Below, one piece after another: positions 361 through 61,233 of a DNA stretch of 64,000 nt (position 1 is the first letter of the stretch; each line of letters begins with the position of its first letter). A program made the translations under genes and the position numbers. Source of the stretch: a virus. The notes beneath the pieces are model-generated. The model was not told where the DNA came from and made no database searches. It saw only the letters and a list, made by a program, of their open reading frames with translations. The DNA is taken from positions 62,001 to 126,000 of the IMG/VR virus record IMGVR_UViG_3300026320_000001; one strand, given 5' to 3'.

Positions 361-1557
361 ATGCAACCATTATATCTGTTGAAAATTGAAGTAGATGGAA
401 ATGCAAATAAATATTATCGTATGATTCCCAATGGAGATTTATTTACTGCCGAATGGGGCAGAGTGGGTTCTAATTCTCAAACTATGGATTATTCAATTAA
501 TGATTGGGATAAAAAGTTACACGAGAAATTAAGAAAAGGATATGTTGACCAAACTCATCTAGTATCTGAAATCACATCTAATTCTAAATCAAGAGAATAT
601 TCTGATATAAAAAACAAATCAATTGCAACTATTGTTCAAAGATTACAATCTATGGCAAAAATAGCCATTGAAGAAAATTATACAATTTCATCCAGTAATG
701 TTACTCAAAAAATGATTGATGAAGCACAAGCATTAATTAATAATCGTTTTTCTTTGGATTCCAATGTTGATTATTTTAATGAACAATTGATTCAATTATT
801 TAGAATTATCCCAAGAAAAATGAAAAAAGTTTCTGATAATATTTCTCAATCTAAAAAAGATTTTGGAATTATTATTCAAAGAGAACAAGATTTGCTTGAC
901 ACAATGAAGGGTCAGGTAATTCAACAATCTGTTTTGAATGCCGATGATAATATTGATAATGACAAGCAAACAATTCTTGATGTATTAGATTTACAATTTT
1001 CCGAAATAAATAAGACAGAAGAAAAACAAATTAAATCACATCTTGGTTCTATTGATAATAAATTTTATCAAGCTTGGAAGGTTGTCAATAATAAAACTCA
1101 AAATATATTTGACAAATTTATAAAACAAAATAATATCAATGAAAAAAAATTACTTTTTCATGGTTCAAAAAATGAGAATTATTGGAGTATCATAAATAGC
1201 GGATTGATTTTACGACCAAATGCAGTTATTACCGGAAAGATGTGGGGTTTGGGAATATATTTTGCGTCTGCGGCAGTAAAAAGTTTAAATTATAGTTCTT
1301 TGAAAGGAAGTTATTGGACTGGTGGAACATCTAATTCTGGATTTTTATCTATATTTGATGTTGCATATGGAAATCCATATAATGTTTATAATTTTGATAG
1401 TAAATATTATGAATTAGATTATAATAAATTACAAAAATTTTCACCAAATGCAAATTGTATACATGCAAGAGCAGATAGGGGAATGTTGAAAGCCGATGAA
1501 ATTGTGATATATAAAGAAGAACAATGTACTATAAAATATTTAGTGGAATTGAGATGA
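361..1557 (+). CDS. WGR-PARP ADP-ribosyltransferase
   Basis: This 398-residue protein resembles poly(ADP-ribose) polymerases, which transfer ADP-ribose from NAD+ to protein or nucleic acid. Visible parts: an N-terminal WGR domain (W32-G33-R34); a helical stretch at about 85-190 resembling the PARP regulatory helical domain; and a C-terminal catalytic domain. The H-Y-E triad is complete: His267 in LLFHGS, Tyr311 in SLNYSS after GLGIYFA, and Glu380 in DEIVIY followed by KYLVEL, matching PARP1 NEYIVY and KYLLKL. WGR is known in other PARPs as a DNA-end or nucleic-acid sensing domain, so activation by broken or phage DNA is a plausible inference. No zinc finger, BRCT or macrodomain is present. 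It is the second gene of the first unit, so early expression and attack on, or protection from, a host pathway is likely but unproven. Confidence 0.9.
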   Translation: MQPLYLLKIEVDGNANKYYRMIPNGDLFTAEWGRVGSNSQTMDYSINDWDKKLHEKLRKGYVDQTHLVSEITSNSKSREYSDIKNKSIATIVQRLQSMAKIAIEENYTISSSNVTQKMIDEAQALINNRFSLDSNVDYFNEQLIQLFRIIPRKMKKVSDNISQSKKDFGIIIQREQDLLDTMKGQVIQQSVLNADDNIDNDKQTILDVLDLQFSEINKTEEKQIKSHLGSIDNKFYQAWKVVNNKTQNIFDKFIKQNNINEKKLLFHGSKNENYWSIINSGLILRPNAVITGKMWGLGIYFASAAVKSLNYSSLKGSYWTGGTSNSGFLSIFDVAYGNPYNVYNFDSKYYELDYNKLQKFSPNANCIHARADRGMLKADEIVIYKEEQCTIKYLVELR

Positions 1558-5369: not shown

Positions 5370-5903
5370 ATGAGTGTTGTTGCAGTTAAAATTATTAATA
5401 ATGAAAAAAATATTGGATTTGAAATATCTAGTGATTCTATTATGACCAGAAATGCAACTCAATCTAAAAATAACACATCTGATTTTGTAAAACTTTATGA
5501 AATAAATGATATTGTTGTTGGAACTGCTGGATATGCAGAAGATTCTTCTTTAATGAAATTATTTATTGAAACAACAAAACCATCTAGTTCTACTGAAACA
5601 GGTTTACTCGAATTTATATCCAGATTTCAAGATTGGAAAAAAAAGAAAACTGATAATGGAAGCATAAATAGCACTTTTTTTATTGGGTATGAATATAAAA
5701 TTTTTTATATAAGTGGATGGCATATCCAACAAATAACAAAATATGATGCAATTGGTGCAGGACAAGATTTTGCATTGGCATCATTATATCTTGGACACAA
5801 TACTAAAGAAGCCGTAAAAACTGCAATTGAACTTTCTGTTTATTGTGAAGAACCCATAATAACAATAGAAAAATATATAACATTAGGAAAACAATATGTT
5901 TGA
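5370..5903 (+). CDS. HslV/proteasome-like N-terminal nucleophile protein
   Basis: This 177-residue protein resembles bacterial HslV, the peptidase subunit that forms rings with the HslU unfoldase. After removal of Met, residue 1 is Ser, the possible nucleophile; Bacillus HslV (CodW) also uses Ser where most use Thr. The block FVKLYEINDIVVGTAGYAED matches HslV KVRRLYNDKVxAGFAG. The later block GAGQDFALASLYLGHNTKEA matches the HslV G-SGGNFALAAA region with the following helix, and length fits the family (about 175). A counterpart of Asp17 may be Asp21 (Met counted as residue 0 is uncertain by one); Lys33 is not obvious, so activity is uncertain. No hslU-like ATPase was seen, so it may act alone, use the host partner or poison host HslV. 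GGAG ribosome binding site. Confidence 0.7.
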   Translation: MSVVAVKIINNEKNIGFEISSDSIMTRNATQSKNNTSDFVKLYEINDIVVGTAGYAEDSSLMKLFIETTKPSSSTETGLLEFISRFQDWKKKKTDNGSINSTFFIGYEYKIFYISGWHIQQITKYDAIGAGQDFALASLYLGHNTKEAVKTAIELSVYCEEPIITIEKYITLGKQYV

Positions 5904-6186
5904 AAATAATGAAAGAAAACAATTAACAGAAGAACATATGGAAAATCCAAAAGTAGGGGATAGGTTTTCTGAAATGTTGGCTTTTTGGGTTTATGTTTTA
6001 CATGTCAATAATGATTTAAAAACAATTATTACTTTATCTGCACACGCTCCTGCCGAACTTCCAAAAGACGGAAAAATTGAATATCAAACTTTTGATGAAT
6101 TTCGCACAAGATTTCATTATAGCGGAGGAGAAGATTATTGGGTATCTTATATAGATGGAAATAATGATGTTGAAGGTTGGTATTAA
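5896..6186 (+). CDS. Hypothetical protein, 96 aa
   Basis: It overlaps the end of the HslV-like gene by 8 bp. The product looks like a small alpha/beta domain: FSEMLAFWVYVLHV and KTIITLSAHAPAELP in the first half, then FDEFRTRFHYSGGEDYWVSY. No family was recognised. Confidence 0.55.
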   Translation: MFENNERKQLTEEHMENPKVGDRFSEMLAFWVYVLHVNNDLKTIITLSAHAPAELPKDGKIEYQTFDEFRTRFHYSGGEDYWVSYIDGNNDVEGWY

Positions 6187-14050: not shown

Positions 14051-14062
14051 CACAGGAGAATG

Positions 14063-15709
14063 ATGATTAAGTTTTTGGCAAGTATTTTATTTGTAATTAG
14101 ATTTTTTAAAAAGAATAAAAAAGTATCACAATATTTAATAACAACACTTGTATTATTTTCTATATTTTATTTTTTCAATTCAGATATGGCTATCACAATG
14201 ATTTCCTTAATTCTGAGATTGGGATTTTCTGCATTATTATTAATATCTCAGTTTGCATTTTTATTTATGTTTATGGCTCGTTCAAAAACAATTACAATTA
14301 TTCCGGGAGATAAAAATCAATTAACATTGAATGATTATAAAGGCCAAGATATTCTTGTCGAAAATATGAGACAATGGATAAAAACGCTTCGAGGAGACAA
14401 AAAATTTCAAGAAATGGGCGGTGAACCACCAAGAGGATTATTGCTCGTTGGAAGAGCGGGAACTGGCAAGACTCAGTTGTTAAAGTGTTTAAGTGGTGAA
14501 GCAGGGATTGCAATGCACGCAATTGAAGGAAGTGGATTTAAGGCAATGTTTTGGGGAATTGATATTTTAAAGATGAATCAATTTGTTAACAAAGCAAGAA
14601 ATCTTGCATTAGAATATGGTAGTGCAATCTGTTATATTGATGAAATTGATGCTGTAGCTTCTTCTAGAGGGGGAGTTATGGGAGGACAAAATCAACCAGC
14701 CGGAATGATGGGCATAGGTGGAGGTTCTCTATCAACATTATTAACTCAAATGGATGGTCTTTCAGAAGAACGCGAATTTATTAAATGCCAAAATATTATT
14801 AGAAAATTGTTTGGTATGAAATCAATAAATGAAGGATATGTAATGTTTGTTGGTGCAACAAATAGACCTGATGTTCTTGACCCTGCAATTGTCAGAGCCG
14901 GAAGATTAGATAAAACAATTACTGTTGAACCACCAGACGCAAAAGGAAGAAAAGAAATATTTGAATATTACTTGAATAAAATCAAACATGATGATATAAA
15001 TGTTGATAGTGTTGTTGCATTTTCTCATGGAATAACTCCGGCAGAAATTGCAATGTCTGTTCAAAGAGACAGCGTTAGAAATGCAAGATTTGCAAATAGA
15101 AATTCTGTAACACAAGAAGATTTAGAGTGGGCATTAGTAGAAGAACGTGCTGGATTTTCAAATCCAATTGATAACATGCCAATAGAACAACAAAAACAAG
15201 TATGTATTCATGAAAGTGGACATGCTGTTGCATTATATCATCTTAGAAAAGATAGATTAATTAGTTTTGTTTCTACCGTTAGAAGAGGTTCAGCTTTGGG
15301 AATGGTTATTCCTGTTGATACAGAAACTAATTATGCAATTCCTTTAAAAAGCTTTATTGCAGATATTAGAATTTCTATGGCTGGAGATAAGGCAACAGAA
15401 GTTCTTCTCGGAGAACGTTGGACTGGTGCTAGGGGAGATATTGAACATATTAAAAATTATGTTTCTTACTTGGTTCATCATGGAGTTTTTGGTCAAATAC
15501 CATTTGGAAATAGTGAAAGTATTATGAATAATGAACAAGTACAAAAATGGATAATCTCACAATGGGAAGCAACACAAGAATTCTGTGAAAATCATATTGA
15601 TGAAATTAGAGTTTTATCAGACGTTCTAATGGAAAAGAAAGAACTTCCCGGTAGAGAAGCAATTAAAATTATTGAAAGTGTTATAGGAGAAAGAAAAAAT
15701 GAATCGTGA
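14063..15709 (+). CDS. ftsH: FtsH-like membrane AAA+ zinc protease
   Basis: This 548-residue protein matches FtsH, the membrane-bound hexameric ATPase that unfolds and degrades membrane and regulatory proteins. Two N-terminal hydrophobic spans (about 18-36 and 43-72) leave almost no extracytoplasmic domain, unlike host FtsH. Walker A VGRAGTGKT (about 128), Walker B CYIDEID, second region of homology GATNRPDVLDPAIVRAGRLD, zinc site HESGH (about 383) and the likely third ligand in GARGDIE are all present, so it should be active. A Gly/Met-rich insertion (about 205-222) lies in the AAA module. ATGs at 14060 and 14063 both occur; the second is better spaced from GGAG. Phage FtsH could clear host defence or phage regulatory proteins (inference). 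Confidence 0.92.
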   Translation: MIKFLASILFVIRFFKKNKKVSQYLITTLVLFSIFYFFNSDMAITMISLILRLGFSALLLISQFAFLFMFMARSKTITIIPGDKNQLTLNDYKGQDILVENMRQWIKTLRGDKKFQEMGGEPPRGLLLVGRAGTGKTQLLKCLSGEAGIAMHAIEGSGFKAMFWGIDILKMNQFVNKARNLALEYGSAICYIDEIDAVASSRGGVMGGQNQPAGMMGIGGGSLSTLLTQMDGLSEEREFIKCQNIIRKLFGMKSINEGYVMFVGATNRPDVLDPAIVRAGRLDKTITVEPPDAKGRKEIFEYYLNKIKHDDINVDSVVAFSHGITPAEIAMSVQRDSVRNARFANRNSVTQEDLEWALVEERAGFSNPIDNMPIEQQKQVCIHESGHAVALYHLRKDRLISFVSTVRRGSALGMVIPVDTETNYAIPLKSFIADIRISMAGDKATEVLLGERWTGARGDIEHIKNYVSYLVHHGVFGQIPFGNSESIMNNEQVQKWIISQWEATQEFCENHIDEIRVLSDVLMEKKELPGREAIKIIESVIGERKNES

Positions 15710-46676: not shown

Positions 46677-47804
46677 CTATGGTAATGTCATAACACCGGC
46701 AATTGCATTTGTCGCAATACCAGATGCCCAACTCTTCATAAGAGTTGCATTTTGGTTAAGATTTGCATTAGCAAAATTATTATCAACATTTGCCAATGTT
46801 GTTCCTTCGATAACTAATTTTACAAGTTTATTCGCTGATGGAGAAATCACATACAAGCGAGTATCATCTAAAACTAGGCTAAAAGGTGTTGTCCAATCAG
46901 CTACTTGTGGTAATGCCATTACATCATATGTTCCCATAGTGTTAATATAACCAATACGAACATAATCTGATTCCAAAGTATATCTGTAATTTGCATCTGC
47001 CGGTAAAACACTCAATAGAGCGACTGGAGTTCCAACAATAATGGCTTTATTTCCACCATTCCATGCAGAAACCTTTTGAGCCAAAGTGATTAAATCAGAT
47101 TGACTATATCCAGCGTACTTCAATTTTGCATTGCCTGAAGATGTAAGATTTGTCATAGCAGTATTGAACGTAGTATAAACATCTCTTGTCATTTCTGATT
47201 CAAGTGAACGAATAACTTTTGTTACAAAATCTCCCAATGATTCTTTTCCGGCCAAAACCTTGTAAAGAGAAACTTGTGTTGATAATTCACGCATTACAGG
47301 AACAAGTGTAACTTGTCCTTCAAATTGCTTATGAATTTCTCCGGTTCTCATGCCTTTACCAGCTTTTGAAACCACAAATAAATCACGAGGTTTAATATCG
47401 AATGAAGCAGAATCTCCCCAATCAAGTGCTTTTACATCAGTATAAATACCAATACTATCAATTAATGTATCTGGAAGAACCATATCAACAAGAGCGTTGA
47501 TAACAGCAAAAGTAGCCCATTTAACCATAGGGTTACTAATCCATTGTTCTAAAGGAAGTTGTTCAAAATGAGCAACACCTGCATGGCGTAAAATTTCACG
47601 CTTCAAGCTTGCATTCATTTGAGTTTCTTTTTCATCAAACGTAATTGTTGTTCCATCTGGACGATTACGTTGAAAATCATATTGTTTTCCATTGTTCTTG
47701 TTTTGCATTGAACGATAATGGTTGTAATAGTCCAAAAATGATTTATATGGACTTAAAAATGTTTCGCCTCCGGCGAATTGTATAACTTTATTAGTAATTT
47801 TCAT
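46677..47804 (-). CDS. Major capsid protein
   Basis: 375 residues with an HK97-like layout: an N-terminal arm with charged helix, an E-loop region (DWGDSASFDIKPRD), the spine helix area (LGDFVTKVIRSLESEMTRDVY) and a C-terminal beta domain (VMALPQVADWTTPFSLV). Placed just after protease/scaffold and its accessory gene, and before connectors, as in siphoviruses. No cleavage site was assigned. Confidence 0.85.
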   Translation of the reverse strand: MKITNKVIQFAGGETFLSPYKSFLDYYNHYRSMQNKNNGKQYDFQRNRPDGTTITFDEKETQMNASLKREILRHAGVAHFEQLPLEQWISNPMVKWATFAVINALVDMVLPDTLIDSIGIYTDVKALDWGDSASFDIKPRDLFVVSKAGKGMRTGEIHKQFEGQVTLVPVMRELSTQVSLYKVLAGKESLGDFVTKVIRSLESEMTRDVYTTFNTAMTNLTSSGNAKLKYAGYSQSDLITLAQKVSAWNGGNKAIIVGTPVALLSVLPADANYRYTLESDYVRIGYINTMGTYDVMALPQVADWTTPFSLVLDDTRLYVISPSANKLVKLVIEGTTLANVDNNFANANLNQNATLMKSWASGIATNAIAGVMTLP

Positions 47805-48386: not shown

Positions 48387-50525
48387 TTATTCCCATAATT
48401 TTTCTTGCTTTGGTTTTCTTTCAGAAAAAGGAAGTTGCATTCTTATAATGTCATCTTTTTCCTTATCTTTACTTCCAGCATAAACAAATGCCTTTGCTTT
48501 TACCATATTTGTATAAGAATCCATATTTTCTAAACTAAATTCTAAAGACAAATTGCGGCATTTTTCAATTTCTGCATCTGGCATTCCAACTTCCATCGCT
48601 TCATTTAAAACTTTTTCTACTGCAAAACTAAATTTTTCCAATTCTGAATTTTTCTTGTATTGTTTTAATTCTACATTTTCTTTTGACATTTCATTGATTG
48701 TTGCAGAATCTTTTGCAATAGCCAAAGATGCTTCCTTAACAAAATTAATCATTGAATTAGTAATATTTTTTAATTTAGCATCAGAACCTTTTGCAATTTC
48801 AACAGCGCAAGATTCAAGTAAACTATAGAATACACTTTTATTCTTATCTTTTTCAGACATTTGACGATATGTTTTTGTTTCTGATTCTAAAAATGAAAGA
48901 ATTGCTTTTACATCAAGATTTTCATTCAATGACATATTTACATCTTCTTTTTCTTCTGCGTCAGAACCAACTGTTGAATCAGCATAAGATTCTTTTACAT
49001 CACCCTTATCTCCCTCTTTTTTATCTTCTTTTTTTTCTTTTTCAGGAGTTTCTTTTTTTTCTTCTTCAGGTGTTTCTTCTTTAGCAAAAGTTCCATCTTC
49101 TTTTGACATAACTTCTGTGTCTGTCATTTCTTCTTTTGACATAACTTCTGTGTCTGTCATTTCTTCTTTTGCCATTTCTTCTGTCTTATTTTTATCGGCC
49201 ATATTATTTACCTCCATTCCCAAGTAATTATCTTCTTGAAATTCAGAAGACATTTTTTCTTCATTTGGCTTATCTAAGCCCATTTTCTCATAAATCTTTA
49301 GTATTTTTCCAACCACACCAGATTCATTTTGACCTCTTGCTCTTTGTAAAGCGGCAGAAAGACCATAATGATTATAAACAAGAGTATTATTTTTTAACTC
49401 CATAACTGGATATTTCAAATGTTCACTTGGGGCATCTTCCCACCCATTTTCAACAAGCATATAAACATCATTAACTAATGATTTGTAATTGCTTGCATTT
49501 AAAATCTTATTTCTAAGAGATGTTTTATCTACATTTCCCCATGCATCTTCACTCATTGATTCTTTTTTTTTGTCAATTTTTAAAACTTCACCAGAACCTA
49601 AATCTTCTGAAGAAAATTCAGACATTTTTTCTTTCTTTACCCAATGTCCATCTTTTACTTCATGTGTTTTTTTAAAACTACTAATTGCAATTGCCCATCC
49701 ATTTTTATTTTTATCTGTTCCTATAGATTCGGCTTGTTTTGCAATAGCATTGGCTTGGCTTAAAGTAATTGGGGGATTGATTCCTTTTAATGCAGGATTT
49801 GCATCTTTTAAACTAGCGTAAGGCATAGTAATATCACCTTTCTTTTCATAACTTGAAATCTTATCATCAATATCAATTAATTTATTTATCACTTCTTTTA
49901 CTTCATTTTTCAAAATTGAGAAATCAGATTTATATTCAAATTCTTCTTTATAGATTTTTTCATATTCTTCATTCTCTTCTTTTGCAAATGAAATCATTTG
50001 TAAATTTGCACCCGGAGATGCTGGAGTTGTAAAATCTCCCAAAACACAAATAGCAGTATATGTAAAATCTAATAAATTTAATAAACCATCTTCTGTTTCA
50101 TTATAGTCATTGACTTCTAATTCAACTGAAACTGATTTATTTTTCTTTCCAGATTCTTGAAATACTTGCATAAATTTTGGAGCATATTTTTTCCATATTT
50201 TTCCAAATACATTTAAAGAAGTTCTACCGTCTGGTAAAATTTCAAATTCTGCACTATCTGGCATTACAAATCCAGAAATAATAGGAATATCAGAATGTCC
50301 TCCAAAATCTCTCAATCTATTATCATATTCAAAAATTATTGGTTTTTCATATAATGTTGGAGCAGTTCTTTTTAATGTCTCAACATCACAAACTGTATCA
50401 TGAAGACTTTTTCCTGTTGAAAATGCTTTAATTTTTGCTGTTGCAAATTGACTGTCTGGTGATTCATATATAATATCAACACTTTCAATTTCAAAATTTA
50501 ATTTCTTATTTACCAAGTAAATCAC
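48387..50525 (-). CDS. Prohead protease fused to a ChaB-like domain and scaffold
   Basis: 712 residues in three parts. Residues about 1-185 look like a prohead serine protease (GGHSDIPIISGFV with His77, SVSVELE with Ser131/133). About 234-290 is a ChaB-like domain (NPALKGINPPITLSQANA, GWAIAISSFKKTHEVKDGHW). The rest is an acidic Glu/Lys-rich linker and a coiled-coil scaffold tail (VLNEAMEVGMPDAEIEKC). The protease and scaffold are usually separate genes; here they would be cleaved apart or act in cis. Confidence 0.75.
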   Translation of the reverse strand: MIYLVNKKLNFEIESVDIIYESPDSQFATAKIKAFSTGKSLHDTVCDVETLKRTAPTLYEKPIIFEYDNRLRDFGGHSDIPIISGFVMPDSAEFEILPDGRTSLNVFGKIWKKYAPKFMQVFQESGKKNKSVSVELEVNDYNETEDGLLNLLDFTYTAICVLGDFTTPASPGANLQMISFAKEENEEYEKIYKEEFEYKSDFSILKNEVKEVINKLIDIDDKISSYEKKGDITMPYASLKDANPALKGINPPITLSQANAIAKQAESIGTDKNKNGWAIAISSFKKTHEVKDGHWVKKEKMSEFSSEDLGSGEVLKIDKKKESMSEDAWGNVDKTSLRNKILNASNYKSLVNDVYMLVENGWEDAPSEHLKYPVMELKNNTLVYNHYGLSAALQRARGQNESGVVGKILKIYEKMGLDKPNEEKMSSEFQEDNYLGMEVNNMADKNKTEEMAKEEMTDTEVMSKEEMTDTEVMSKEDGTFAKEETPEEEKKETPEKEKKEDKKEGDKGDVKESYADSTVGSDAEEKEDVNMSLNENLDVKAILSFLESETKTYRQMSEKDKNKSVFYSLLESCAVEIAKGSDAKLKNITNSMINFVKEASLAIAKDSATINEMSKENVELKQYKKNSELEKFSFAVEKVLNEAMEVGMPDAEIEKCRNLSLEFSLENMDSYTNMVKAKAFVYAGSKDKEKDDIIRMQLPFSERKPKQEKLWE
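49111..49176 (-). repeat. 33-bp tandem repeat in the protease-scaffold gene
   Basis: Two near-identical 33-bp units (EMTDTEVMSKE in protein) lie in the acidic linker. Slippage would change linker length. Confidence 0.8.
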
Positions 50526-50533
50526 CTCCTATA

Positions 50534-50740
50534 TTAAAAAAGATTTTTTGTTATTTTGTAATAAAATGGAATATTTTCTAAAACTTCCTTTAATAAATCA
50601 GTATTAGCAAAATACCATTCCCCATTTTTACCTCTACCAAAAAGAGGAATATTTTTTGAATTTATAAGCCAATTGGCAATAATACCATTTGTTTTATATA
50701 ATTTATTCTCTTTTATAATGTCAGGGTTAACTACATACAT
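50534..50740 (-). CDS. Small protein, 68 aa, unknown
   Basis: Sequence (VVNPDIIKENKLYKTNGIIA, YFANTDLLKEVLENIPFYYK) looks like a small winged-helix-like domain: helix, helix, hairpin with KNGEWYF. DNA binding is possible. Lies between scaffold and endonuclease. Confidence 0.5.
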   Translation of the reverse strand: MYVVNPDIIKENKLYKTNGIIANWLINSKNIPLFGRGKNGEWYFANTDLLKEVLENIPFYYKITKNLF

Positions 50741-50752
50741 GATAATCTTCCT

Positions 50753-50785
50753 TTAAACAAAAACTCTCTTTATTACAAGAGAGTT
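50753..50785 (-). terminator. Terminator after the EDxHD endonuclease
   Basis: A 9-bp stem (50762-50770 against 50777-50785) with a 6-nt loop is followed on - by TTTTGTTT. It overlaps the end of the endonuclease frame. Confidence 0.75.
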
Positions 50786-51693
50786 GTTTTTAATATATTT
50801 TCTATATTATCAAAATTCCAATACGGAATCCTAATAAGTTTTATATCATTATCTTTACAATATTTTGTTTTTATTTTATCATTTTTCTTTGTTTTTTTAA
50901 ATTCTATTGGTTTATTGAATTTATCTTTATAATGAAGAATTCCATCATATTCTATTAAAATATTTAATTTTGAAATATAAAAATCAAATGAAAGAATGCG
51001 AATATTTTTGCAATTTTTAAAACCTTTATATTGTGTTTCAAATTTTATGTTATTATTTAATAAATATTCTGATATTCTTTTTTCACCTTTTGATGAAGCA
51101 CAATTTGGACAATTTTTTCCAGAAGTTCTATTGGAAATTTTACATATCCATTTATATCCACAATCTTTGCAAATCCAATTTTTATATTTATGTGAACCTA
51201 TTGTAAAATCCTTTGGAATTCCAGTATTTTTATCATAATTCCATTCAGAAGAAATTTCTGGAAATTTTATTTCCAAATTATTATGATTTCCATTTATTCT
51301 CCATAAAGTTTTACATTTACATAAACCTCTTCCTGAACGAATATAATCAAAACATATGTAAAATTCTTTTTTACAATTATTGCATAAAAATTTTAAATTC
51401 TTTTTTTCTGTAGAAATATATTCTCCAGAAATATATGTTATAAGAATATTATTATTTTTTATATATAGTAAAACATTATATAAAGAATAAGGATTATATT
51501 TTGCAAACTCATATAATTTACAATTTCTTTTTATTTGAGTTTTAAAATTGGTAAATGTTGTACTATATTTATATCCATATTTATCTATAATATTTAAATA
51601 ATCTTTTGTTGTATTATATTTTTTATCAATCAAAAAATAATATTTATTTTTTTCTATGATTGATTTTACTTCTTGATATGAAAATTTTCCCAT
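50773..51693 (-). CDS. EDxHD-type homing endonuclease with zinc ribbons
   Basis: 306 residues: two zinc-ribbon modules (CNNCKKEF; CKDCGYKW with CPNCASSKGE) then a Vsr/DUF559-like PD-(D/E)XK domain: Glu in KGEKRISEYLL, Asp in LSFDFYI, IEYDGILHY, and KNDKIKTKYC followed by LIRIPYW. This set resembles the EDxHD homing endonucleases known from phage introns. It has its own promoter and 5' structured leader, and lies downstream of the gene split by the group I intron. Confidence 0.85.
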   Translation of the reverse strand: MGKFSYQEVKSIIEKNKYYFLIDKKYNTTKDYLNIIDKYGYKYSTTFTNFKTQIKRNCKLYEFAKYNPYSLYNVLLYIKNNNILITYISGEYISTEKKNLKFLCNNCKKEFYICFDYIRSGRGLCKCKTLWRINGNHNNLEIKFPEISSEWNYDKNTGIPKDFTIGSHKYKNWICKDCGYKWICKISNRTSGKNCPNCASSKGEKRISEYLLNNNIKFETQYKGFKNCKNIRILSFDFYISKLNILIEYDGILHYKDKFNKPIEFKKTKKNDKIKTKYCKDNDIKLIRIPYWNFDNIENILKTTLL

Positions 51694-51785: not shown

Positions 51786-51814
51786 ATTATACCACAAAAT
51801 CTTTATTTTGTCAA
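51786..51814 (-). promoter_or_regulatory. Sigma70-type promoter of the EDxHD endonuclease
   Basis: On the - strand TTGACA (51814-51809), 17 bp, TATAAT (51791-51786), both perfect. It lies between the end of the intron-split gene (51821) and the leader at 51781. Confidence 0.88.
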
Positions 51815-52847: not shown

Positions 52848-53357
52848 TTATTTCCAATAGCTATCTGCATTCAATTCATAAAATTTTTGAAATGAATAAG
52901 ATTTTTCATCTTTTATTTCTTCACCAAACCAATAAGGAATCATAAATTCATTCATTTCTTTTTCAGAATAAAATTCAACTTCTACAATTATATCTCCATC
53001 TTCAAAATAGTCAATTGTAGCAGTTTGATAAATTCCTCCAGAACCAGTATTAACCGTTGGTAAAGTAATAAAAACTCTCTTTTTTTTAATTGGTATTTTT
53101 CCAATAAAATCAAATATTCTTATATATTGATTTTCTGTAATTTCAGGTTCAATTTCTTCTCTCACTCCATCATTTAAATTGTACTTTGTACAATGAGTAT
53201 AAACAGTATATTCTTCTCCAATCATTTTTCTTATTCTGTTAGAAGGATAAGATTCATCATTAGAGTTTGTATAAACATCTTCAATATCCACATTTCCTGA
53301 AATACATTCAGCAGGAGGTAATTCTTTTAGCTTCCATCTTCTTTCTTTTTCTAACAT
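52848..53357 (-). CDS. CYTH-domain (triphosphate tunnel) protein
   Basis: 169 residues with the CYTH pattern: EKERRWK at the start (E-x-E-x-[KR]), RIRKM, YTHCTKYN, REEIEPEI, KKKRVFI, VEVEFYSEKEMNEFMIPYWFGEE and KSYSFQKFYEL. CYTH enzymes hold triphosphates with a metal in a beta tunnel and include thiamine triphosphatases, RNA triphosphatases and class IV adenylate cyclases. The usual Lys of ExExK is Arg7. It sits in virion genes, where such a protein is unexpected. Substrate cannot be read from sequence. Confidence 0.8.
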   Translation of the reverse strand: MLEKERRWKLKELPPAECISGNVDIEDVYTNSNDESYPSNRIRKMIGEEYTVYTHCTKYNLNDGVREEIEPEITENQYIRIFDFIGKIPIKKKRVFITLPTVNTGSGGIYQTATIDYFEDGDIIVEVEFYSEKEMNEFMIPYWFGEEIKDEKSYSFQKFYELNADSYWK

Positions 53358-53368
53358 AAATCCTCCTT

Positions 53369-54190
53369 TTATAAAACAAATGGGTTTGGATGTTCATTTG
53401 GTTGTAAAATTCTAATTCTCCATTTAGGAAGATAATTTTTATTATTTCCCACAGCAAAAATTGGAATTATTGAATTATTAATATATTGTGGAAATGGGTC
53501 TGATTTATTTTCCCTATATTTACCAGTCCATTGACTTCCAGTTGGATTGCTAGAAGTTGATTCAAATAGATTTCCATTTTTATCAATCCATATTTCAATT
53601 CTTACTGAATTTGATGGTCTATAAAACATATACCAATTATCTATTAAATTATATTGTTTATAATTTCCCAAACAATCAATAGCATCAAATTCCCAACAAT
53701 CTTCTCCAGAAATTCTTTTTTCTCCAGTTATCTTTAATATAGTTCCACCACAAGCAGACGGTTGTAATCTCATATTTTCATTATCTAAATTTTTTTCATT
53801 CACATAATCAGCATTAGTATCACTACCATATCTATTTGTTATAAACCTATCCCCCTTCATTAATGAACTCCAAGAATATTTTGCTTGTTGTTCTGTAATG
53901 CTTGGAGATAATGACCAACATAAATTATGCATCCATAATTGAATATCTTCTGTCATGTCAACATAATCATCAATAATAAATCTGGCAACAGCAGGAAGAC
54001 CCTTAATTCCTCTAGGTGCTTCATTTCTTGTTGGACGACTCACATGAAATCTGAGTTTTGAATTTGTAACAATATAATCAGGCCATTGTTGGTCATAGTC
54101 AAGATTTACAACTCCAAAAATATTATTGTTTTGATTATTTTCTATAATAGAATAATAACTTTCATTTTCATATTCAACTGTTATTTTCAT
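53369..54190 (-). CDS. Virion-region protein, 273 aa, unknown
   Basis: A mixed alpha/beta sequence with many Trp, Tyr, Asn and Asp (YDQQWPDYIVTNSKLRFHVS, GEDCWEFDAIDCLGNY, DNWYMFYRPSNSVRIEIW). It might be a minor structural or receptor-associated protein. No family was recognised. Confidence 0.55.
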   Translation of the reverse strand: MKITVEYENESYYSIIENNQNNNIFGVVNLDYDQQWPDYIVTNSKLRFHVSRPTRNEAPRGIKGLPAVARFIIDDYVDMTEDIQLWMHNLCWSLSPSITEQQAKYSWSSLMKGDRFITNRYGSDTNADYVNEKNLDNENMRLQPSACGGTILKITGEKRISGEDCWEFDAIDCLGNYKQYNLIDNWYMFYRPSNSVRIEIWIDKNGNLFESTSSNPTGSQWTGKYRENKSDPFPQYINNSIIPIFAVGNNKNYLPKWRIRILQPNEHPNPFVL

Positions 54191-54192
54191 GA

Positions 54193-54516
54193 CTATATCT
54201 TTGTAAAATCAGTTCCAACATATATTCCCCCATCGTTTTCAACTGTAACTTTTTTTGGTTTATAAGGGTCACTTGTTGAAACAACAACTTCTTGAACATA
54301 GATAATATTTGTATATCCAAGAAATCTTGGAACATAATAATTATTTGGTAATTTAATAAAATCTATTGTATAATTTATATTATTAATTTTTTCTATATTT
54401 GTAGTTACAACGTCAGAACTAAAAGTATAACCAATTGGCAATTCTGTTTGAGTATTTGTTTCAAACATACTTGCTGTCAATCTTGGTTTTACGGGATTTA
54501 TAATTTTATAATTCAT
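54193..54516 (-). CDS. Small virion-region protein, 107 aa
   Basis: Beta-rich with SNDVVTTNIEKIN, FLGYTNIIYVQEVVVS and TVENDGGIYVGTDF. Lies between lysin and the 273-residue gene. Function unknown. Confidence 0.5.
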   Translation of the reverse strand: MNYKIINPVKPRLTASMFETNTQTELPIGYTFSSDVVTTNIEKINNINYTIDFIKLPNNYYVPRFLGYTNIIYVQEVVVSTSDPYKPKKVTVENDGGIYVGTDFTKI

Positions 54517-54527
54517 ATAGTTCCTTT

Positions 54528-56015
54528 CTATCTTTTAGATATGTTAGTTGTTATATATTTATTATCACTATATTCAACTGTTATTTTTTTTATATTATTA
54601 TTTGGAATTGTTCCAGGAGGAATTGTTGTTTTATTTTTTATTCTAAATCCTAAAATATTTGCAACTCTTCTTAATTTATATCCGGGATAACGAATAACAT
54701 CATCTTCACCAGATGGTTTTCCTATTATTTTCACAATACCATTATCTCGAATTGCCATAGTGGTACTACCACCACCATCATTCATATACGCCATATAACA
54801 ACCTAATTTTAACATTATTTTTGCAACATCTTGAAAATTTAAACCTTCTTTACTATAATAATCTCCACCATCCACAACAAAGAAAAATATTGTTTTTCCA
54901 TCTTCTGAATATCCCCATGCTGTTCTTGCTCTAATATCATCTATTGCTTTATTAATTGGAACAATTATTCCATTAATAACCAACCTGTTAGGATGAGAAA
55001 TTGCATTCCATATTGACGATGGACGAACAAGAGATAATTCATTATTTTTACCTATGTAAACAGGTTCTTCTATTCCAAATTTTCCATATACATTTCCTTC
55101 ACTTGAAGCATATCCTGCAATCGTAGTTGAAATAAATCCATCTCCATTGATTGCAAAATCTATATTAAATGCATCTAAATAATCAGGAACATATTTTCTT
55201 GCTTGAAGTTGAGGACTCACATATAGTTCAATTTTATCAGAATCAACTTTCATAAGATGATATGTTGCTTTTCCATAGGAAGTATAAGTTTCATATTTCT
55301 TATAATTAATTCCATCATAATATTGTTTTTCTTCCAATAATAAATCTTCTGTTGGAATTGGATTTATGTTTATTTGAATATTAAATCTTTTTATCAAAGA
55401 TATTTCATCTCCATTATAATAATTCAAATCAACAGATGAACTTTCAACTCCATATAAACTTCCAATTCCTTTATCTGTATATTGCCAAAATAACCAACCC
55501 TTATCTTTCCAAGTATCGGGAATTGCAGGTTGTGGATTATAAGACGCTATCCATAAAGGATATTGATTAAAATATATATTTTCGCTTGATGGAACATTAT
55601 CTTTCCAATAGTAGAAGTTCGTATAAATTCCAATTTCTTTATTTCCTACTAAAATTTTTAAATGTTCAAGAAAAATTTTCCAATTTTCCCATCCTTTGAA
55701 TTGACCACCATAATCTTTTTCAACATCTATAAACATTGGTAGTTCACCAAAATCACCGTCAAAAACACTCATATATAATTCAGCTTGTGTTTTTGGGTCA
55801 ATTCTATCATCATAAAACCAATAACTTCCACGAGGAAGATTTGCTCTTTTAGACATTGACCAGTTATATAGAAAATCAGGGTCTTTCCATATATTTTGTC
55901 CAGCCCTTACAATTGTAAATTTAGCATTTTGTGACATTATTGAAAAATCTATTTGTCTTACTGTTTCATCATTATCATTATATAAATCAACATCAGTCCC
56001 TATAAGATAAGTCAT
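54528..56015 (-). CDS. GH25 lysozyme fused to a phosphodiester glycosidase
   Basis: 495 residues. N-terminal GH25 muramidase: DVD (8-10), IVRAGQ, GSYWFYD, FIDVE (Asp97, Glu99), IGIYTNFYYW, LWIASYN and WQYT, ending VDLNYYNG. From about 225 a NAGPA-type (DUF2233) domain: INGDGFIST, RTAWGYSEDGKTIFFFVVDGG, LKLGCYMAYMNDGGGSTTM. GH25 cuts peptidoglycan glycan chains; NAGPA relatives cleave sugar phosphodiesters, so teichoic acid or similar is a possible target. Probably an endolysin or virion lysin. Confidence 0.88.
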   Translation of the reverse strand: MTYLIGTDVDLYNDNDETVRQIDFSIMSQNAKFTIVRAGQNIWKDPDFLYNWSMSKRANLPRGSYWFYDDRIDPKTQAELYMSVFDGDFGELPMFIDVEKDYGGQFKGWENWKIFLEHLKILVGNKEIGIYTNFYYWKDNVPSSENIYFNQYPLWIASYNPQPAIPDTWKDKGWLFWQYTDKGIGSLYGVESSSVDLNYYNGDEISLIKRFNIQININPIPTEDLLLEEKQYYDGINYKKYETYTSYGKATYHLMKVDSDKIELYVSPQLQARKYVPDYLDAFNIDFAINGDGFISTTIAGYASSEGNVYGKFGIEEPVYIGKNNELSLVRPSSIWNAISHPNRLVINGIIVPINKAIDDIRARTAWGYSEDGKTIFFFVVDGGDYYSKEGLNFQDVAKIMLKLGCYMAYMNDGGGSTTMAIRDNGIVKIIGKPSGEDDVIRYPGYKLRRVANILGFRIKNKTTIPPGTIPNNNIKKITVEYSDNKYITTNISKR

Positions 56016-56028
56016 AATTCTCCTATCT

Positions 56029-56391
56029 TTATATCAAATATCCAAATACATCAATATCAACTGTACAATCAGATGTTGTTCCAGTAGCTATTGATATTTC
56101 AAAACTATCATTTGAAATTAAATTTTGAAATTTTGTATTATTTGTATCTAATATAATAAAATCTGTTTCTGGAGTTGTCAAAGAAGATAAATCTACAGAT
56201 TGTTTCCAATTTGTAAAATTATATTCAGTTCCACCAGCCATAGAAGCAGAAGGATTTCTAATAATAACATGTGTTATATATCCGGTTTTTCCAGAAGGAA
56301 CAATATATAAACTATTATTTCCGACTGTTTTCATATCAACACCTTCAGATGTTGATAATTTTGTCATTGCTATTGTATTTAAATTTGCCAT
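56029..56391 (-). CDS. Small beta-rich virion protein, 120 aa
   Basis: Sequence AMTKLSTSEGVDMKTVGNNS, YIVPSGKTGYITHVIIRNPS and CTVDIDVFGYLI looks like a jelly-roll or Ig-like surface protein. Adjoins the lysin. Function unknown. Confidence 0.55.
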   Translation of the reverse strand: MANLNTIAMTKLSTSEGVDMKTVGNNSLYIVPSGKTGYITHVIIRNPSASMAGGTEYNFTNWKQSVDLSSLTTPETDFIILDTNNTKFQNLISNDSFEISIATGTTSDCTVDIDVFGYLI

Positions 56392-56401
56392 ATTTATCCT
56401 C

Positions 56402-56587
56402 CTAAAAGTTAAAAACTATTTGTCCATCATAAGTTACGACATCTCCATCATAAATTACAGCGGAGGATAAATTAAAATTAAAATCAAATGGTTGTCCAGA
56501 ACTAATCAAAACATTATATTGATTTTCATTTAAAGTAATAATTACATCTAAATTATCAGTAGGAGTAATAATTGGATTTATTGTCAT
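56402..56587 (-). CDS. Small protein, 61 aa, unknown
   Basis: Beta-rich (LDVIITLNENQYNVLISSG, VIYDGDVVTYDGQIVFNF). Sits between two virion-like small genes. May be a decoration or fibre-attachment piece. Confidence 0.5.
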   Translation of the reverse strand: MTINPIITPTDNLDVIITLNENQYNVLISSGQPFDFNFNLSSAVIYDGDVVTYDGQIVFNF

Positions 56588-56588
56588 A

Positions 56589-56939
56589 TTAAACTCCTAG
56601 AATATTAAAATTTCCAGCCAAAATAGTTCTTGTATAAACTGTTATTGGAGTAATTTCTTGTTTTGGTGTATTCCAAACAAATTCCCATTTATATTTTTCT
56701 GATGCAATAGGAAGAGATTCAATAGAATCTTTTGAAATAAAAAAATGTAATTTACCAATAGATAAATCGGTTTCAGTTATAACAATAGGTATTATTGTCA
56801 AAGCTGTTCCAGAAGGAATAATGTTTGCTGTAAAATCATAATTTGTTAAATCAATACCAAAATCTGCATCAAAAGATAAATCATCTCCTAATTGCATTGT
56901 TAAATCAAGTTTTCCAGAATTTTGTTTTAAGTCAGTCAC
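56589..56939 (-). CDS. BppU-like Ig-fold protein, 116 aa
   Basis: Pattern LDLTMQLGDDLSFDADFGID, then SLPIASEKYKWEFVWNTPKQ and VYTRTILAGNF matches the outline of BppU N-terminal domains, like the gene at 29458. In phages this domain attaches fibres or baseplate proteins. Assignment by pattern. Confidence 0.55.
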   Translation of the reverse strand: MTDLKQNSGKLDLTMQLGDDLSFDADFGIDLTNYDFTANIIPSGTALTIIPIVITETDLSIGKLHFFISKDSIESLPIASEKYKWEFVWNTPKQEITPITVYTRTILAGNFNILGV

Positions 56940-56982
56940 ATTATTTTGCCTCCTTTATTTTATTGATAAAAGACATGTTTCA

Positions 56983-57747
56983 TTAACCTTTTGCTATTCC
57001 ATGAACAAAACCAGTTCCAGCAGTTAAAGCAACCGTACCTTTTATTTGCACTTTATAGTATCTGTAAGGTGCTGGTGAAGCAACATAACTACTTGTTGCT
57101 AATGCAGAAACAGTAATTGGTGAACCAACAATAATAGCATCACTAAAATCAGTATCATTTGCCGCTACAACTTGCCAAGTAATAGAATTTGCAATATCTG
57201 TATTTTGAATAGTATAAGCCATAACAGAATAATTTAATGCATCTATTCCTGAACCAACAACATCAGCATAACTATTTGTTGATAATTGAGCAACAGGAGA
57301 AACTTCTAATGATGCATTGCTAAAACTTCCGCTAACTGAAACTACTTGATTACTAGGTAAAACAACTGGAAAACTTGCGGCGGATGTTTTTTGACCCAAT
57401 GATGTTGGCATTCTTTCAAAAGCCCATTTCACCAAACCTCTTAATTTTCCACTTATTGTACCGCTTGTATCGGTAATAACAGCAGAATCGGCAACCGCCC
57501 CCTGAGTCGCATCTCCTCCGTTTGCAATTTCCACTTGTCCTATTGTTATAGTTCCGGTACTAACAGAAACAGGAAGACCATAAACAGACAGAGTTAAATC
57601 CTCTGCAATTATTCTCCAAGTTCCATCGTCTATCATGAATATTGTTCCACCAATTATACTTGCTCCAACGATTGTGTCATTATCAATATCCGATGTTTCA
57701 GCTATATATGTGGGAACATTATTCTTTGAAATTAATTTTAATGTCAT
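56983..57747 (-). CDS. Virion protein, 254 aa, beta-rich
   Basis: Ser/Thr/Val/Ala-rich strands (GASIIGGTIFMIDDGTWRII, VVLPSNQVVSVSGSFSNASL, YVASPAPYRYYKVQI) typical of surface fibres or decoration proteins. Lies just after the portal gene. Function unknown. Confidence 0.6.
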   Translation of the reverse strand: MTLKLISKNNVPTYIAETSDIDNDTIVGASIIGGTIFMIDDGTWRIIAEDLTLSVYGLPVSVSTGTITIGQVEIANGGDATQGAVADSAVITDTSGTISGKLRGLVKWAFERMPTSLGQKTSAASFPVVLPSNQVVSVSGSFSNASLEVSPVAQLSTNSYADVVGSGIDALNYSVMAYTIQNTDIANSITWQVVAANDTDFSDAIIVGSPITVSALATSSYVASPAPYRYYKVQIKGTVALTAGTGFVHGIAKG

Positions 57748-57760
57748 ATTTTATTGCCTC

Positions 57761-59410
57761 CTATTTTCCAGCGTTTCCGCCATCTTCTCTTGTTTGAGAA
57801 CCGCTATCAGTTAATTTAGATGTTGGTTTTGTTGGACGACCTTTTGTTTTAGTTGTTGAACTATCTCCTCCACTATCGGCTGGCATTTGCGCCCCCATAA
57901 TAATTGGAGTTAATCCATCTACAAAATTATTTATTTTAGTCATCGCCAATTGACGTTCAAAATGATGAGGTAATTGACCCAATGCGGCCGCTATTTTTTG
58001 CATATTTACTATACCATATGACATCATATCTTTTTGCATATTTAATCTTTCTTCTCTATTGGTAAAGAAATTTGTACCTTCAAGAAAAAATTTAAATTTT
58101 GTTTTTGTTTTTTTATTGATTTGATATTCCAAGAAATCAGAAAAATAAGGATAAATATGTTCCATCAAATATTCATCAACGTTTATTGATAATTGAGATT
58201 CAACAGCATTATTTTTATCTAAAGTAAATATTAATCTAGAATTTACACCAGATGAAGCAGTAGTTGTTTTCAAAAATTCTTCATAAAATGGAGTTCCTAA
58301 TGGAAAATCAATTGCTTTCATATCTTCAAGAGGAGCCGCACCTACTTTAATAGCTTCTGATAAGCCCGATTTTAATAAAGCAAGAAACTTTCCTAGCAAA
58401 TCAGGACTAACAGCAACACTATCTTTAACAACTCCACCTTTAACATCTTTATTTAGCATTGGGATTTTTCCTAAAACTAATTTACTTGCACTTGCAATAT
58501 AAGCATTTGTTTGTAGTTTACGAATAACTGGTTGTAAAACTACATCTGAAAACATAGGAGCAAGAAAAGGAATTCTTGTTGCTAATTCAGGATTAAATTT
58601 GAAACACCAAAAACCATCTTTAGGACTTGTTTGAGTCCATAAAACCCATGAACCAGTTCTTCTATCAACTGGATTTGATGGATTATACTTTTTATAAGAT
58701 TCATTTTCTCCATAAACTCTATTATAAAGAGATTTAAAAATTCTAGGAAACATATTTATATCAACACCGGGTTGAATAAAATATAATATATCAAAATCAA
58801 AAAGCAATCCATAATCCCATCTACCAGTAATTAAACAATATTGATGATTTAATTCTTGAAGCGTATATCTATCACCTTCATCTCTCAATACCGAGAAAAA
58901 TGCTTCTTGTCTAAGCATTTGTCTAATTGCTGTTCCAAATTCTTTTTTAATATCAAATTTATCTAAGAAATTGTTTACTATTTTGACATCTTTTTTATAT
59001 TGTTTTAAAAATTTTGCATCTTCAAAATCAACATCATCTCCAATAGGAACATAAGTTAAATCAAAACTTAACATTCCAGAAAGATAATATAAAACTCTTT
59101 TATATACCATTGATGTTAATTCAAAAAATTCAGAATATCCAACTAATTGTTCTTCATGTTCTTTTGGATTTAATAATGCCGCATCTATTTTATCGGCTGT
59201 TGCCATTTGTGGTGACATTGAAACAGCTTGCAATTGTTGATTAACTAATTGAGGGGTATAAACATTTCCATATAAACTTGATGCAAATTGTAAAACATCC
59301 CAAACTTCTTTTTCTGACAATAAAATATCATCATTCTTAACTTTTATAATATCTGTTGATTTTTTTGATGATGATTTTCTAGTTATTTTTTTTGATTTTG
59401 TTCTTGCCAT
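57761..59410 (-). CDS. Portal protein
   Basis: 549 residues following the terminase large subunit gene. N-terminus has a Lys/Ser-rich start, then LVGYSEFFELTSMVYKRVLY, YKKDVKIVNNFLDKFDIKKEF, and a long stem region; C-terminal Pro/Thr-rich tail (GRPTKPTSKLTDSGSQTRED). Portals form a dodecamer at one capsid vertex for packaging and exit. No single motif is diagnostic; position and size decide. Confidence 0.8.
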   Translation of the reverse strand: MARTKSKKITRKSSSKKSTDIIKVKNDDILLSEKEVWDVLQFASSLYGNVYTPQLVNQQLQAVSMSPQMATADKIDAALLNPKEHEEQLVGYSEFFELTSMVYKRVLYYLSGMLSFDLTYVPIGDDVDFEDAKFLKQYKKDVKIVNNFLDKFDIKKEFGTAIRQMLRQEAFFSVLRDEGDRYTLQELNHQYCLITGRWDYGLLFDFDILYFIQPGVDINMFPRIFKSLYNRVYGENESYKKYNPSNPVDRRTGSWVLWTQTSPKDGFWCFKFNPELATRIPFLAPMFSDVVLQPVIRKLQTNAYIASASKLVLGKIPMLNKDVKGGVVKDSVAVSPDLLGKFLALLKSGLSEAIKVGAAPLEDMKAIDFPLGTPFYEEFLKTTTASSGVNSRLIFTLDKNNAVESQLSINVDEYLMEHIYPYFSDFLEYQINKKTKTKFKFFLEGTNFFTNREERLNMQKDMMSYGIVNMQKIAAALGQLPHHFERQLAMTKINNFVDGLTPIIMGAQMPADSGGDSSTTKTKGRPTKPTSKLTDSGSQTREDGGNAGK

Positions 59411-59424
59411 TTTTCTCCTCTCTG

Positions 59425-61233
59425 TTAAACTACCATAATACTATTGAGAAATTCTTCATCAGTATTTCCGGTTTCTTTTAATAAATCGTTATCTAAAAAT
59501 CCAACGAAATAATTTGCATATGAAACACAAGTATAACGGTCTTTTCTTGCTCCATCAGGTTCTTTTAATTTAATGTATCCTGCTTCTAATTTCATAGAAA
59601 GATTGACACACTCATTAATAAACAAACTTGTTTGAATATATGGATGAAGAAAGAATGCTTTTATAGTTATATCATCATTATCTATTATTTTTTTATAAGT
59701 TTTCATTAAATATCCATCTGCAACTGTTTCTTCAACTAAAAATGAAAACATTTTTTTCTTTAATTTATCTCTAAATGCCACAGCAATTTCAGAATTTAAT
59801 TTTGCAGATGCAGAAATTGGAAATATATTTTCTTTAGCATTAATAGCCAAAGTACGTCTTGATAATTCTTCATAAACATCATCAGAAATTCCAATATGTT
59901 TCATAACTGTCATTGCTTCGTATTCAATATTTCTTTCATCATCTTTTGTTATATTGCCTAATTGGTCAAAAATACTTATACCAGCGTTTGCTATATCAAG
60001 CACAATATAATCAGCATTAAAATCAAAATAAATTTGTTTCAATCTCAATGTTTGAAAAACAGTATTTTTTCCAGAATGACTTTCCATATAATATAATTCT
60101 CTGTGATACCCAACACTCGTTGGTAAAAGTCTAATGCAAGAAATAATTGTTAAGTCATTACTTCTTCCCGCACGAGTAGCAACATCACAAGATATTAAAC
60201 GGATTTCTCCTTCAATTCTTTGGATGTCAAATGGATTTTCTTTCTTATTATATTCATCTTTTCTTTGAGGATAAAATGCTTTCTTTATATCTCTATTTTT
60301 TGCAAACATTGACATTTTAAAATAAGCATCTCCAGCTTCACCAGCAGGTATATTAAGATATTCTAATTGAAATGGAATTTCTTCCATTGTTTCTTTATCA
60401 TTTTCAACCTGTTTTACTGTTTTTATTCTGTGATGAATAGCAGTTAAATAATCTGTGACAAAAAAACCAGAATCTTTTCCAGATAACATTTGTTTTATTG
60501 TAATCAATGCTTCTTTATACCACCATCCAGAAACAAAGTGTGCAGATGTAATGTGCATTTCTTTTGCTTCTTCGGGAGGAATAATATGATATTCAATATT
60601 TTGATTATATGGTGTTGGTCTAACATAAGCAAATGGTTTGATGATACTATCTAAAATATCCTTATCTACCAATCTACTTTCTTCTACTATAATAAATGTT
60701 GCTCTGTGACCCCTCGCACTTTCTTTACTTGCCACAACTACAATATTACTTCCATTATGAAATATTACTTCATGTTTATTTTGTCCAGATGTAATACTTA
60801 AAATTTCTCTTGCTATATTTGGATAATTATTATTTAAACTTTGTATTTTTTCGCCTATAATAATACCAGCTTGTGCCATAGTGGAAGAAACAATAACAAC
60901 TGTGCTTCCGGGATATAGTACACAACGAACTATCGCATAAAGTCCAATTAACCAACTTTTTCCAATACTTCTTGATGCAACAGTAAAAAATTTATCTTTT
61001 ATTCCCATTGCCCATATCCAGACAATTTGAAATGGATATAATTTTACACCAAAATAATGTTCTACAAAACGATGAGTATTGAGTCTATAAAAAGTAACCC
61101 AAGATTTTAATCTATCTTTTCTTTCTTGTGTTAATTCTTTTTCTTTTTTCATAACTCTTGGTTTTTGAAATAAGTTTTTACTTCTTGTATTTTTAAAATA
61201 TTCTTGAGAATAATTTTTTATTTTTCCCACCAT
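59425..61233 (-). CDS. terL: Terminase large subunit
   Basis: 602 residues. ATPase domain with a Walker A-like SRSIGKSW (87-94) and Walker B IIVEES (181-186), then the RNase H-like nuclease domain (RLISCDVA with Asp350, DYIVLDIANAGISIFDQL). It powers DNA into the prohead and cuts the concatemer. Follows the putative small subunit by 2 bp. Confidence 0.92.
   Translation of the reverse strand: MVGKIKNYSQEYFKNTRSKNLFQKPRVMKKEKELTQERKDRLKSWVTFYRLNTHRFVEHYFGVKLYPFQIVWIWAMGIKDKFFTVASRSIGKSWLIGLYAIVRCVLYPGSTVVIVSSTMAQAGIIIGEKIQSLNNNYPNIAREILSITSGQNKHEVIFHNGSNIVVVASKESARGHRATFIIVEESRLVDKDILDSIIKPFAYVRPTPYNQNIEYHIIPPEEAKEMHITSAHFVSGWWYKEALITIKQMLSGKDSGFFVTDYLTAIHHRIKTVKQVENDKETMEEIPFQLEYLNIPAGEAGDAYFKMSMFAKNRDIKKAFYPQRKDEYNKKENPFDIQRIEGEIRLISCDVATRAGRSNDLTIISCIRLLPTSVGYHRELYYMESHSGKNTVFQTLRLKQIYFDFNADYIVLDIANAGISIFDQLGNITKDDERNIEYEAMTVMKHIGISDDVYEELSRRTLAINAKENIFPISASAKLNSEIAVAFRDKLKKKMFSFLVEETVADGYLMKTYKKIIDNDDITIKAFFLHPYIQTSLFINECVNLSMKLEAGYIKLKEPDGARKDRYTCVSYANYFVGFLDNDLLKETGNTDEEFLNSIMVV

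What the first reader, a model, noticed from the sequence alone, without database searches (positions are those of the whole stretch)
52848..53357. CYTH (triphosphate tunnel) protein in the virion gene block
E-x-E-x-R start, RIR, REEIE, EVEF and Y-FQK blocks fit CYTH. Such enzymes act on triphosphates or make cyclic AMP; among late structural genes one could change a nucleotide signal, for example of a host defence, or act on RNA ends. The K-to-R change in ExExK is unusual.
Basis: partly seen in the sequence, partly recalled or inferred. Interest (0 to 1): 0.68.

Follow-up and report, generated by a model that had tools for sequence, protein, structure and literature searches.

The report
Portal-linked phage triphosphate tunnel enzyme
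A large phage carries, among its head-building genes, an enzyme of the triphosphate-tunnel (CYTH) kind with an intact active site, and in its close relatives this gene is placed directly behind the portal gene; it is a new, position-conserved branch of a known enzyme family whose job in the phage is untested.

Summary
The CYTH call is right. ORF 52848-53357(-), 169 aa, matches no Pfam model, but it matches the tripolyphosphatase NE1496/NeuTTM by sequence (E 2e-4 alone; 1e-8 with a profile of its own clade) and by predicted fold (pLDDT 87, pTM 0.82; Foldseek 7e-8, prob 1.00). All 14 active-site positions examined are invariant in its clade, including both metal-binding Glu pairs and the NeuTTM Tyr/Lys dyad. 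The K-to-R change in ExExK is real: Arg in all 6 clade members, Lys in 29/29 bacterial CYTHs. The class-IV cyclase and thiamine-triphosphatase motifs are absent, so cyclic AMP synthesis is unlikely.

The new point is location. Six distinct, uncultured phages carry this monophyletic CYTH (100/100) between the portal gene and the gene before the capsid genes. In five the CYTH start abuts or overlaps the portal stop (ATGA in three); in the window a seven-gene insert separates them. On the portal tree its carriers are scattered, and most relatives without it have ferritin-like genes in the same slot. I read it as a late, exchangeable accessory triphosphatase, most likely acting on tripolyphosphate or short triphosphates in the cell. 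Virion, RNA-end or counter-defence roles are neither shown nor excluded.

The parts
52848..53357 (-). CYTH/TTM protein, 169 aa, ExExR variant, NeuTTM-type
53357..53372 (-). ribosome-binding site AAAGGAGG just before the CYTH ATG; 11 bases between the CYTH ATG and the stop of the upstream gene
   Evidence: sequence
57761..59410 (-). portal protein; upper border of the CYTH slot
   Evidence: PHROG_2739 portal 2e-52; tblastn to Enterocloster phage PMBT24 portal
59425..61233 (-). large terminase subunit
   Evidence: Pfam Terminase_6N 2.9e-6, PHROG terminases
53369..57747 (-). seven-gene insert between portal and CYTH, including a GH25 + phosphodiester-glycosidase (NAGPA) protein at 54528-56015; absent from the other five CYTH phages
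48387..50525 (-). putative prohead protease/scaffold gene (by position and layout only); lower border of the slot
   Evidence: PHROG_3313, unknown function, 3.8e-23; no Pfam match above chance
50534..50740 (-). small protein (68 aa) whose relatives stand directly before the protease/scaffold gene in many of these phages
46677..47804 (-). major capsid protein
   Evidence: 43% identical to annotated MCP of phage PMBT24

Best explanation
It is a catalytically competent short triphosphate tunnel metalloenzyme of the NeuTTM type. Two acidic pairs (E3/E5 and E126/E128) hold Mg2+ or Mn2+ on one wall of an eight-stranded barrel; basic residues on the facing wall (R7, R41, R43, K58, R66, K92, R94) hold a triphosphate chain; Y29/K58 correspond to the proposed NeuTTM dyad, and water attacks the terminal phosphate. 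The most likely substrates are inorganic tripolyphosphate and other short triphosphates. It is a late protein made from the head-gene transcript, by translation coupled to the portal gene in most of its clade, and it sits in an exchangeable accessory slot between portal and protease/scaffold that other phages of the group fill with ferritin-like proteins. The most likely benefit is clean-up or recycling of triphosphates in the cell during assembly. Shown: family, predicted fold, residues, conserved position, one-clade origin. Inferred: activity, substrate, late timing, benefit.
For: Sequence and fold match to the inorganic triphosphatase NE1496, a highly specific tripolyphosphatase (PMC3440374). 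All catalytic positions are fixed across 40-70% identical clade members and dN is below dS in every pair. The NeuTTM dyad Tyr-28/Lys-52 named in PMC3440374 aligns with Y29 and K58. Cyclase and ThTPase motifs absent (criteria from PMC8233210; sequence). Portal-CYTH ATGA overlap in L047, L051 and L073, and a start directly behind or within 3 bases of the portal stop in L023 and L024. Same slot in six phages, CYTH clade 100/100, carriers scattered on the portal tree.
Against: No activity data. Lys of ExExK is Arg in the whole clade, which could alter substrate or rate. The clade sits on a long branch away from bacterial and other phage CYTHs. The L024 copy is split by a frameshift, so the gene is dispensable there or the assembly is wrong. 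dS is near saturation, so dN/dS is only indicative.
Confidence: 0.62

Rival explanations
1. A virion-associated enzyme: made together with the portal, it joins the procapsid or its portal vertex and either acts during packaging or is carried into the next cell.
For: Coupled directly to the portal in five of six phages and always kept between portal and scaffold/capsid genes.
Against: The slot is exchangeable and holds unrelated ferritin-like or other genes, and most relatives lack CYTH, so it is not needed for assembly. No packaging signal known.
Confidence: 0.15
2. An RNA 5'-triphosphatase acting on phage or host transcripts, as Cet1-type TTM enzymes do.
For: Same fold class as Cet1 (weak Foldseek match to T. 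cruzi Cet1, and to giant-virus capping enzymes).
Against: Closest relatives are small-molecule triphosphatases; no guanylyltransferase or methyltransferase partner was found next to it.
Confidence: 0.1
3. A counter-defence enzyme that destroys a triphosphate-bearing signal or cofactor of a host defence system.
For: Patchy distribution and exchange in an accessory slot fit an arms-race gene; CYTH domains occur among CARF/SAVED-linked proteins at CRISPR arrays (PMC10910872).
Against: Late, portal-coupled expression would be late for blocking a defence. No paper in the library holds both 'CYTH' and 'anti-defense'. No adjoining gene points to defence.
Confidence: 0.1
4. A class-IV adenylyl cyclase that makes cyclic AMP.
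For: Founding members of CYTH include CyaB; one phage homologue is annotated 'similar to bacterial adenylate cyclase'.
Against: HF motif absent, and both RxR arginines kept where cyclases replace the central Arg (PMC8233210); best match is a triphosphatase.
Confidence: 0.02

Closest known systems
NeuTTM / NE1496, inorganic triphosphatase of Nitrosomonas europaea (PDB 2fbl, 3typ)
   Same: Size, fold, ExE pairs, RxR, Tyr/Lys dyad, WFGEE block before the C-terminal helix
   Different: About 25% identity; Lys of ExExK is Arg; loop 101-110 inserted; phage head-module gene
CYTH proteins of Aeromonas T4-like and jumbo phages (Aes012_099, CF8_0187, D3_0178) and Chryseobacterium phage MA9V-2
   Same: Phage-encoded, same catalytic residues, up to about 30% identity to the window protein
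   Different: Several stand beside nucleotide-metabolism genes (thymidine kinase, thymidylate synthase); none of the loci checked shows one of this group's portal genes beside it; separate branches of the tree
PHROG_6660
   Same: Full-length match, 1e-11 to 2e-16 for clade members
   Different: Family carries no function in PHROGs
Enterocloster phage PMBT24 head module (proposed Kielviridae, PMC11035940)
   Same: TerL, portal and MCP homologous; gene order the same
   Different: Has a ferritin-like gene, not CYTH, in the slot; no CYTH found anywhere in its genome

Membership tests
CYTH/TTM superfamily | Eight-stranded beta barrel (tunnel) with C-terminal helix | tested here: met
   AF2 model pLDDT 87, pTM 0.82; Foldseek top matches all TTM proteins, prob 1.00
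CYTH/TTM superfamily | N-terminal ExExK: the two metal-binding Glu | tested here: met
   E3, E5 invariant in the clade and in 12 phage CYTHs
CYTH/TTM superfamily | N-terminal ExExK: the Lys | tested here: not met
   Arg in all six clade members; Lys in 29/29 bacterial homologues. Arg also in 4 other phage CYTHs, so a conservative variant rather than a loss
CYTH/TTM superfamily | Second acidic pair ExE near the C-terminus and basic RxR strand | tested here: met
   E126/E128 and R41/R43 invariant in the clade
CYTH/TTM superfamily | Pfam PF01928 above its gathering score | tested here: not met
   No Pfam match even at E<=10 for it or four clade members; the model also scores several annotated phage CYTHs below cut-off, so this is a limit of the model
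NeuTTM-type inorganic triphosphatase | Tyr-28/Lys-52 dyad | tested here: met
   Y29 and K58 conserved; assignment from PMC3440374
NeuTTM-type inorganic triphosphatase | Specific Mg2+-dependent PPPi hydrolysis | not testable with these tools
   needs purified protein
Class-IV adenylyl cyclase (CyaB) | HFxxxxExExK motif | tested here: not met
   Only two residues precede ExE; no HF; criterion from PMC8233210
Thiamine triphosphatase | W(or Y)xRxR motif | tested here: not met
   Position is Ser in the window protein (SNRIR) and not aromatic in relatives

The most novel reading that the evidence does not exclude
A triphosphate tunnel enzyme has become a portal-coupled, virion-associated enzyme of a group of large siphophages, with an Arg-adapted active site for a substrate other than PPPi, trading places with ferritin-like proteins in a dedicated head-module slot.
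Probability: 0.12. Interest if true: 0.75.

Novelty: new variant of a known kind. Interest (0 to 1): 0.42.

Why it matters
Phage CYTH proteins have been listed since 2006 (PMC1524935) and explained only by guess, for example as clearing unmodified nucleotides (PMC7824862). A branch tied to the portal gene, with a fixed ExExR active site, gives a small, expressible protein with clear tests: what it cleaves, and whether it is in the particle. The same slot offers ferritin-like genes as natural comparators for asking what large phages gain from metabolic genes placed in the head operon.

Tried and rejected
Pfam and NCBIfam gave no usable match for the window protein. A genome-contig scan with the clade profile found no chromosomal copy, and the portal alignment was too diverse to scan with. 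The MAFFT register in A1 put the tunnel Lys at Y59; clade sequences (HTVKY, HCVKY, HTTKY) show it is K58, so an apparent second Lys loss was rejected. I considered that the ~160-aa slot proteins of CYTH-less relatives were diverged CYTHs: rejected, they are ferritin-like. 'The host lacks its own CYTH' was not used as an argument, because the phage contig may be misbinned. The A1 profile hit to NE1496 at 5e-33 is partly circular; the clade-only profile is used instead.

Full report
What is there. The ORF at 52848-53357 on the minus strand (169 aa) starts with ATG behind AAAGGAGG, 11 bases after the stop codon of the gene before it. It lies in a run of minus-strand genes from the large terminase (59425-61233) and portal (57761-59410; PHROG portal 2e-52) to the major capsid protein (46677-47804; 43% identical to the annotated MCP of Enterocloster phage PMBT24). 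The window is part of a 147,646-base contig. The contig's two ends share an 80-base repeat of an 18-base unit that codes TDTPVV, and one reading frame runs through the join, so it is most likely a complete circular phage genome.

Identity. Pfam and NCBIfam miss the protein. PHROG_6660 (no function given) matches it over its length, 9.7e-12. Against the PDB the best match is the Nitrosomonas europaea inorganic triphosphatase NE1496, 2.3e-4 for the single sequence and 1.3e-8 for a profile made only of the window protein and three clade relatives. A predicted structure from 13 aligned relatives is confident (mean pLDDT 87, pTM 0.82), and its Foldseek matches are TTM proteins, NE1496 first (7e-8, probability 1.00), then archaeal TTMs, AtTTM3 and human ThTPase. 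Among viral models the best are annotated phage CYTH proteins. The identity is secure.

Active site. By alignment: E3/E5 and E126/E128 are the acidic metal-binding pairs; R41/R43, K58, R66, K92, R94 the basic wall; E68 and D116 are kept. The Tyr-28/Lys-52 dyad proposed for NeuTTM (PMC3440374) corresponds to Y29 and K58. All 14 positions are invariant in the five full-length clade members, where only 48 of 169 columns are (hypergeometric P 5e-9). The Lys of ExExK is Arg in all six clade members (the sixth from the N-terminal piece of the split L024 copy), Lys in 29 of 29 bacterial homologues, and Arg, Val or Thr in 6 of the other phage proteins examined. By the criteria of PMC8233210 it is neither a class-IV adenylyl cyclase (no HF motif) nor a ThTPase (no W/YxRxR), which leaves the triphosphatase class.

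Relatives and place. In IMG/VR five further phages carry the same clade at 40-47% identity to the window protein: L047 (=L050/L071), L023 (=L053/L091), L024 (=L054), L051 (=L052) and L073. No annotated phage record and no GTDB genome contig searched held one this close. In all five the CYTH gene follows the portal gene directly: in L047, L051 and L073 the portal stop and CYTH start overlap as ATGA; in L023 and L024 the start is directly behind or within three bases of the portal stop. Downstream comes a small conserved protein and/or a ferritin-like protein, then the gene in protease/scaffold position and the capsid genes. In the window seven genes, among them a GH25 + NAGPA protein, stand between portal and CYTH. 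So the position is a conserved feature, not an accident of this genome.

The slot. Using the capsid protein I fetched 37 viral and 5 genome-collection loci. Of about 33 distinct phages with the interval visible (my count after merging near-identical contigs, window included), 6 have CYTH; 13 have one family of ferritin-like proteins (Pfam Ferritin 1.7e-9 to 2e-17 for four tested) and 5 a second, more divergent one, two of these together with CYTH. None has both CYTH and the first ferritin-like family. CYTH is in the slot or not found at all in the 14 records searched whole. The slot CYTHs form one clade with 100/100 support, apart from bacterial and other phage CYTHs, while their carriers are scattered on the portal tree (at least two separate groups by well-supported branches, fewest changes four). 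This fits one acquisition followed by loss and/or exchange within the slot. Portals of L023 and L024 are very divergent, so their place is unsure.

What it most likely does. With intact catalytic residues, dN below dS in every pair (dS near saturation) and NeuTTM as closest studied relative, a Mg2+/Mn2+-dependent triphosphatase is the best reading, acting on PPPi or short triphosphates. Position and coupling argue for late expression with the portal. Whether it works free in the cell (favoured, since the slot is dispensable and exchangeable) or in the particle cannot be told. The R7 change may tune substrate choice; that is open. Anti-defence and RNA-end roles are possible but unsupported; cyclase activity is disfavoured.

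Known or new. Phage CYTHs are known from T4-like and jumbo phages (PMC1524935, PMC7824862) and Chryseobacterium phages (PMC10537231). New here, as far as my searches go, are the distinct ExExR branch, its portal-coupled position in six uncultured phages, and its exchange with ferritin-like genes in the same slot. Hence 'new variant of a known kind', moderate interest.

Noticed in passing
L057 L058 L059 L061 L064 L065 L067 L074 L075 L078 L079 L080 L083; second type in L024, L044, L046, L071, L084: Ferritin-like genes sit between portal and protease/scaffold gene in many relatives of this phage; two families, the first never together with CYTH. Possibly an iron or oxidative-stress gene in the head operon of phages of anaerobes.
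   Followed up: partly
G000:C4 ends (L014 1-94, L022 13553-13646): Contig ends share an 18-base repeat coding (TDTPVV)n and one reading frame crosses the join, so the 147.6-kb contig is probably a complete circular phage genome.
   Followed up: yes
G000 16S locus L019 versus window: The genome bin's 16S reads like Bacteroidota by eye and G+C at that locus is 0.42, while the phage (G+C 0.285) has its nearest named relatives in phages of Clostridia; the contig may be misbinned, so the host is unsure.
   Followed up: partly
window 54528-56015 (-): A GH25 lysozyme domain fused to a phosphodiester glycosidase (NAGPA) domain, encoded inside the head module between portal and CYTH.
   Followed up: no
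window 14060-15709 (+): FtsH-like AAA + M41 metalloprotease encoded by the phage.
   Followed up: no
window 361-1557 (+): WGR + PARP catalytic domain protein in the phage genome.
   Followed up: no
L024 5873-6387: The CYTH gene of this phage is split by a frameshift: N-terminal part 5873-6130, remainder in another frame from 5989. Real decay or assembly error cannot be told.
   Followed up: partly
L006 3182-4696 (Aeromonas phage D3): CYTH domain fused behind a roughly 300-residue N-terminal region in one protein of 504 aa.
   Followed up: no
window 51786-51814 (-): A perfect sigma-70-type promoter match (TTGACA-17-TATAAT with TG) just before the DUF4379 zinc-finger, endonuclease-like gene 50773-51693, which looks like a mobile insert in the head module.
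   Followed up: no
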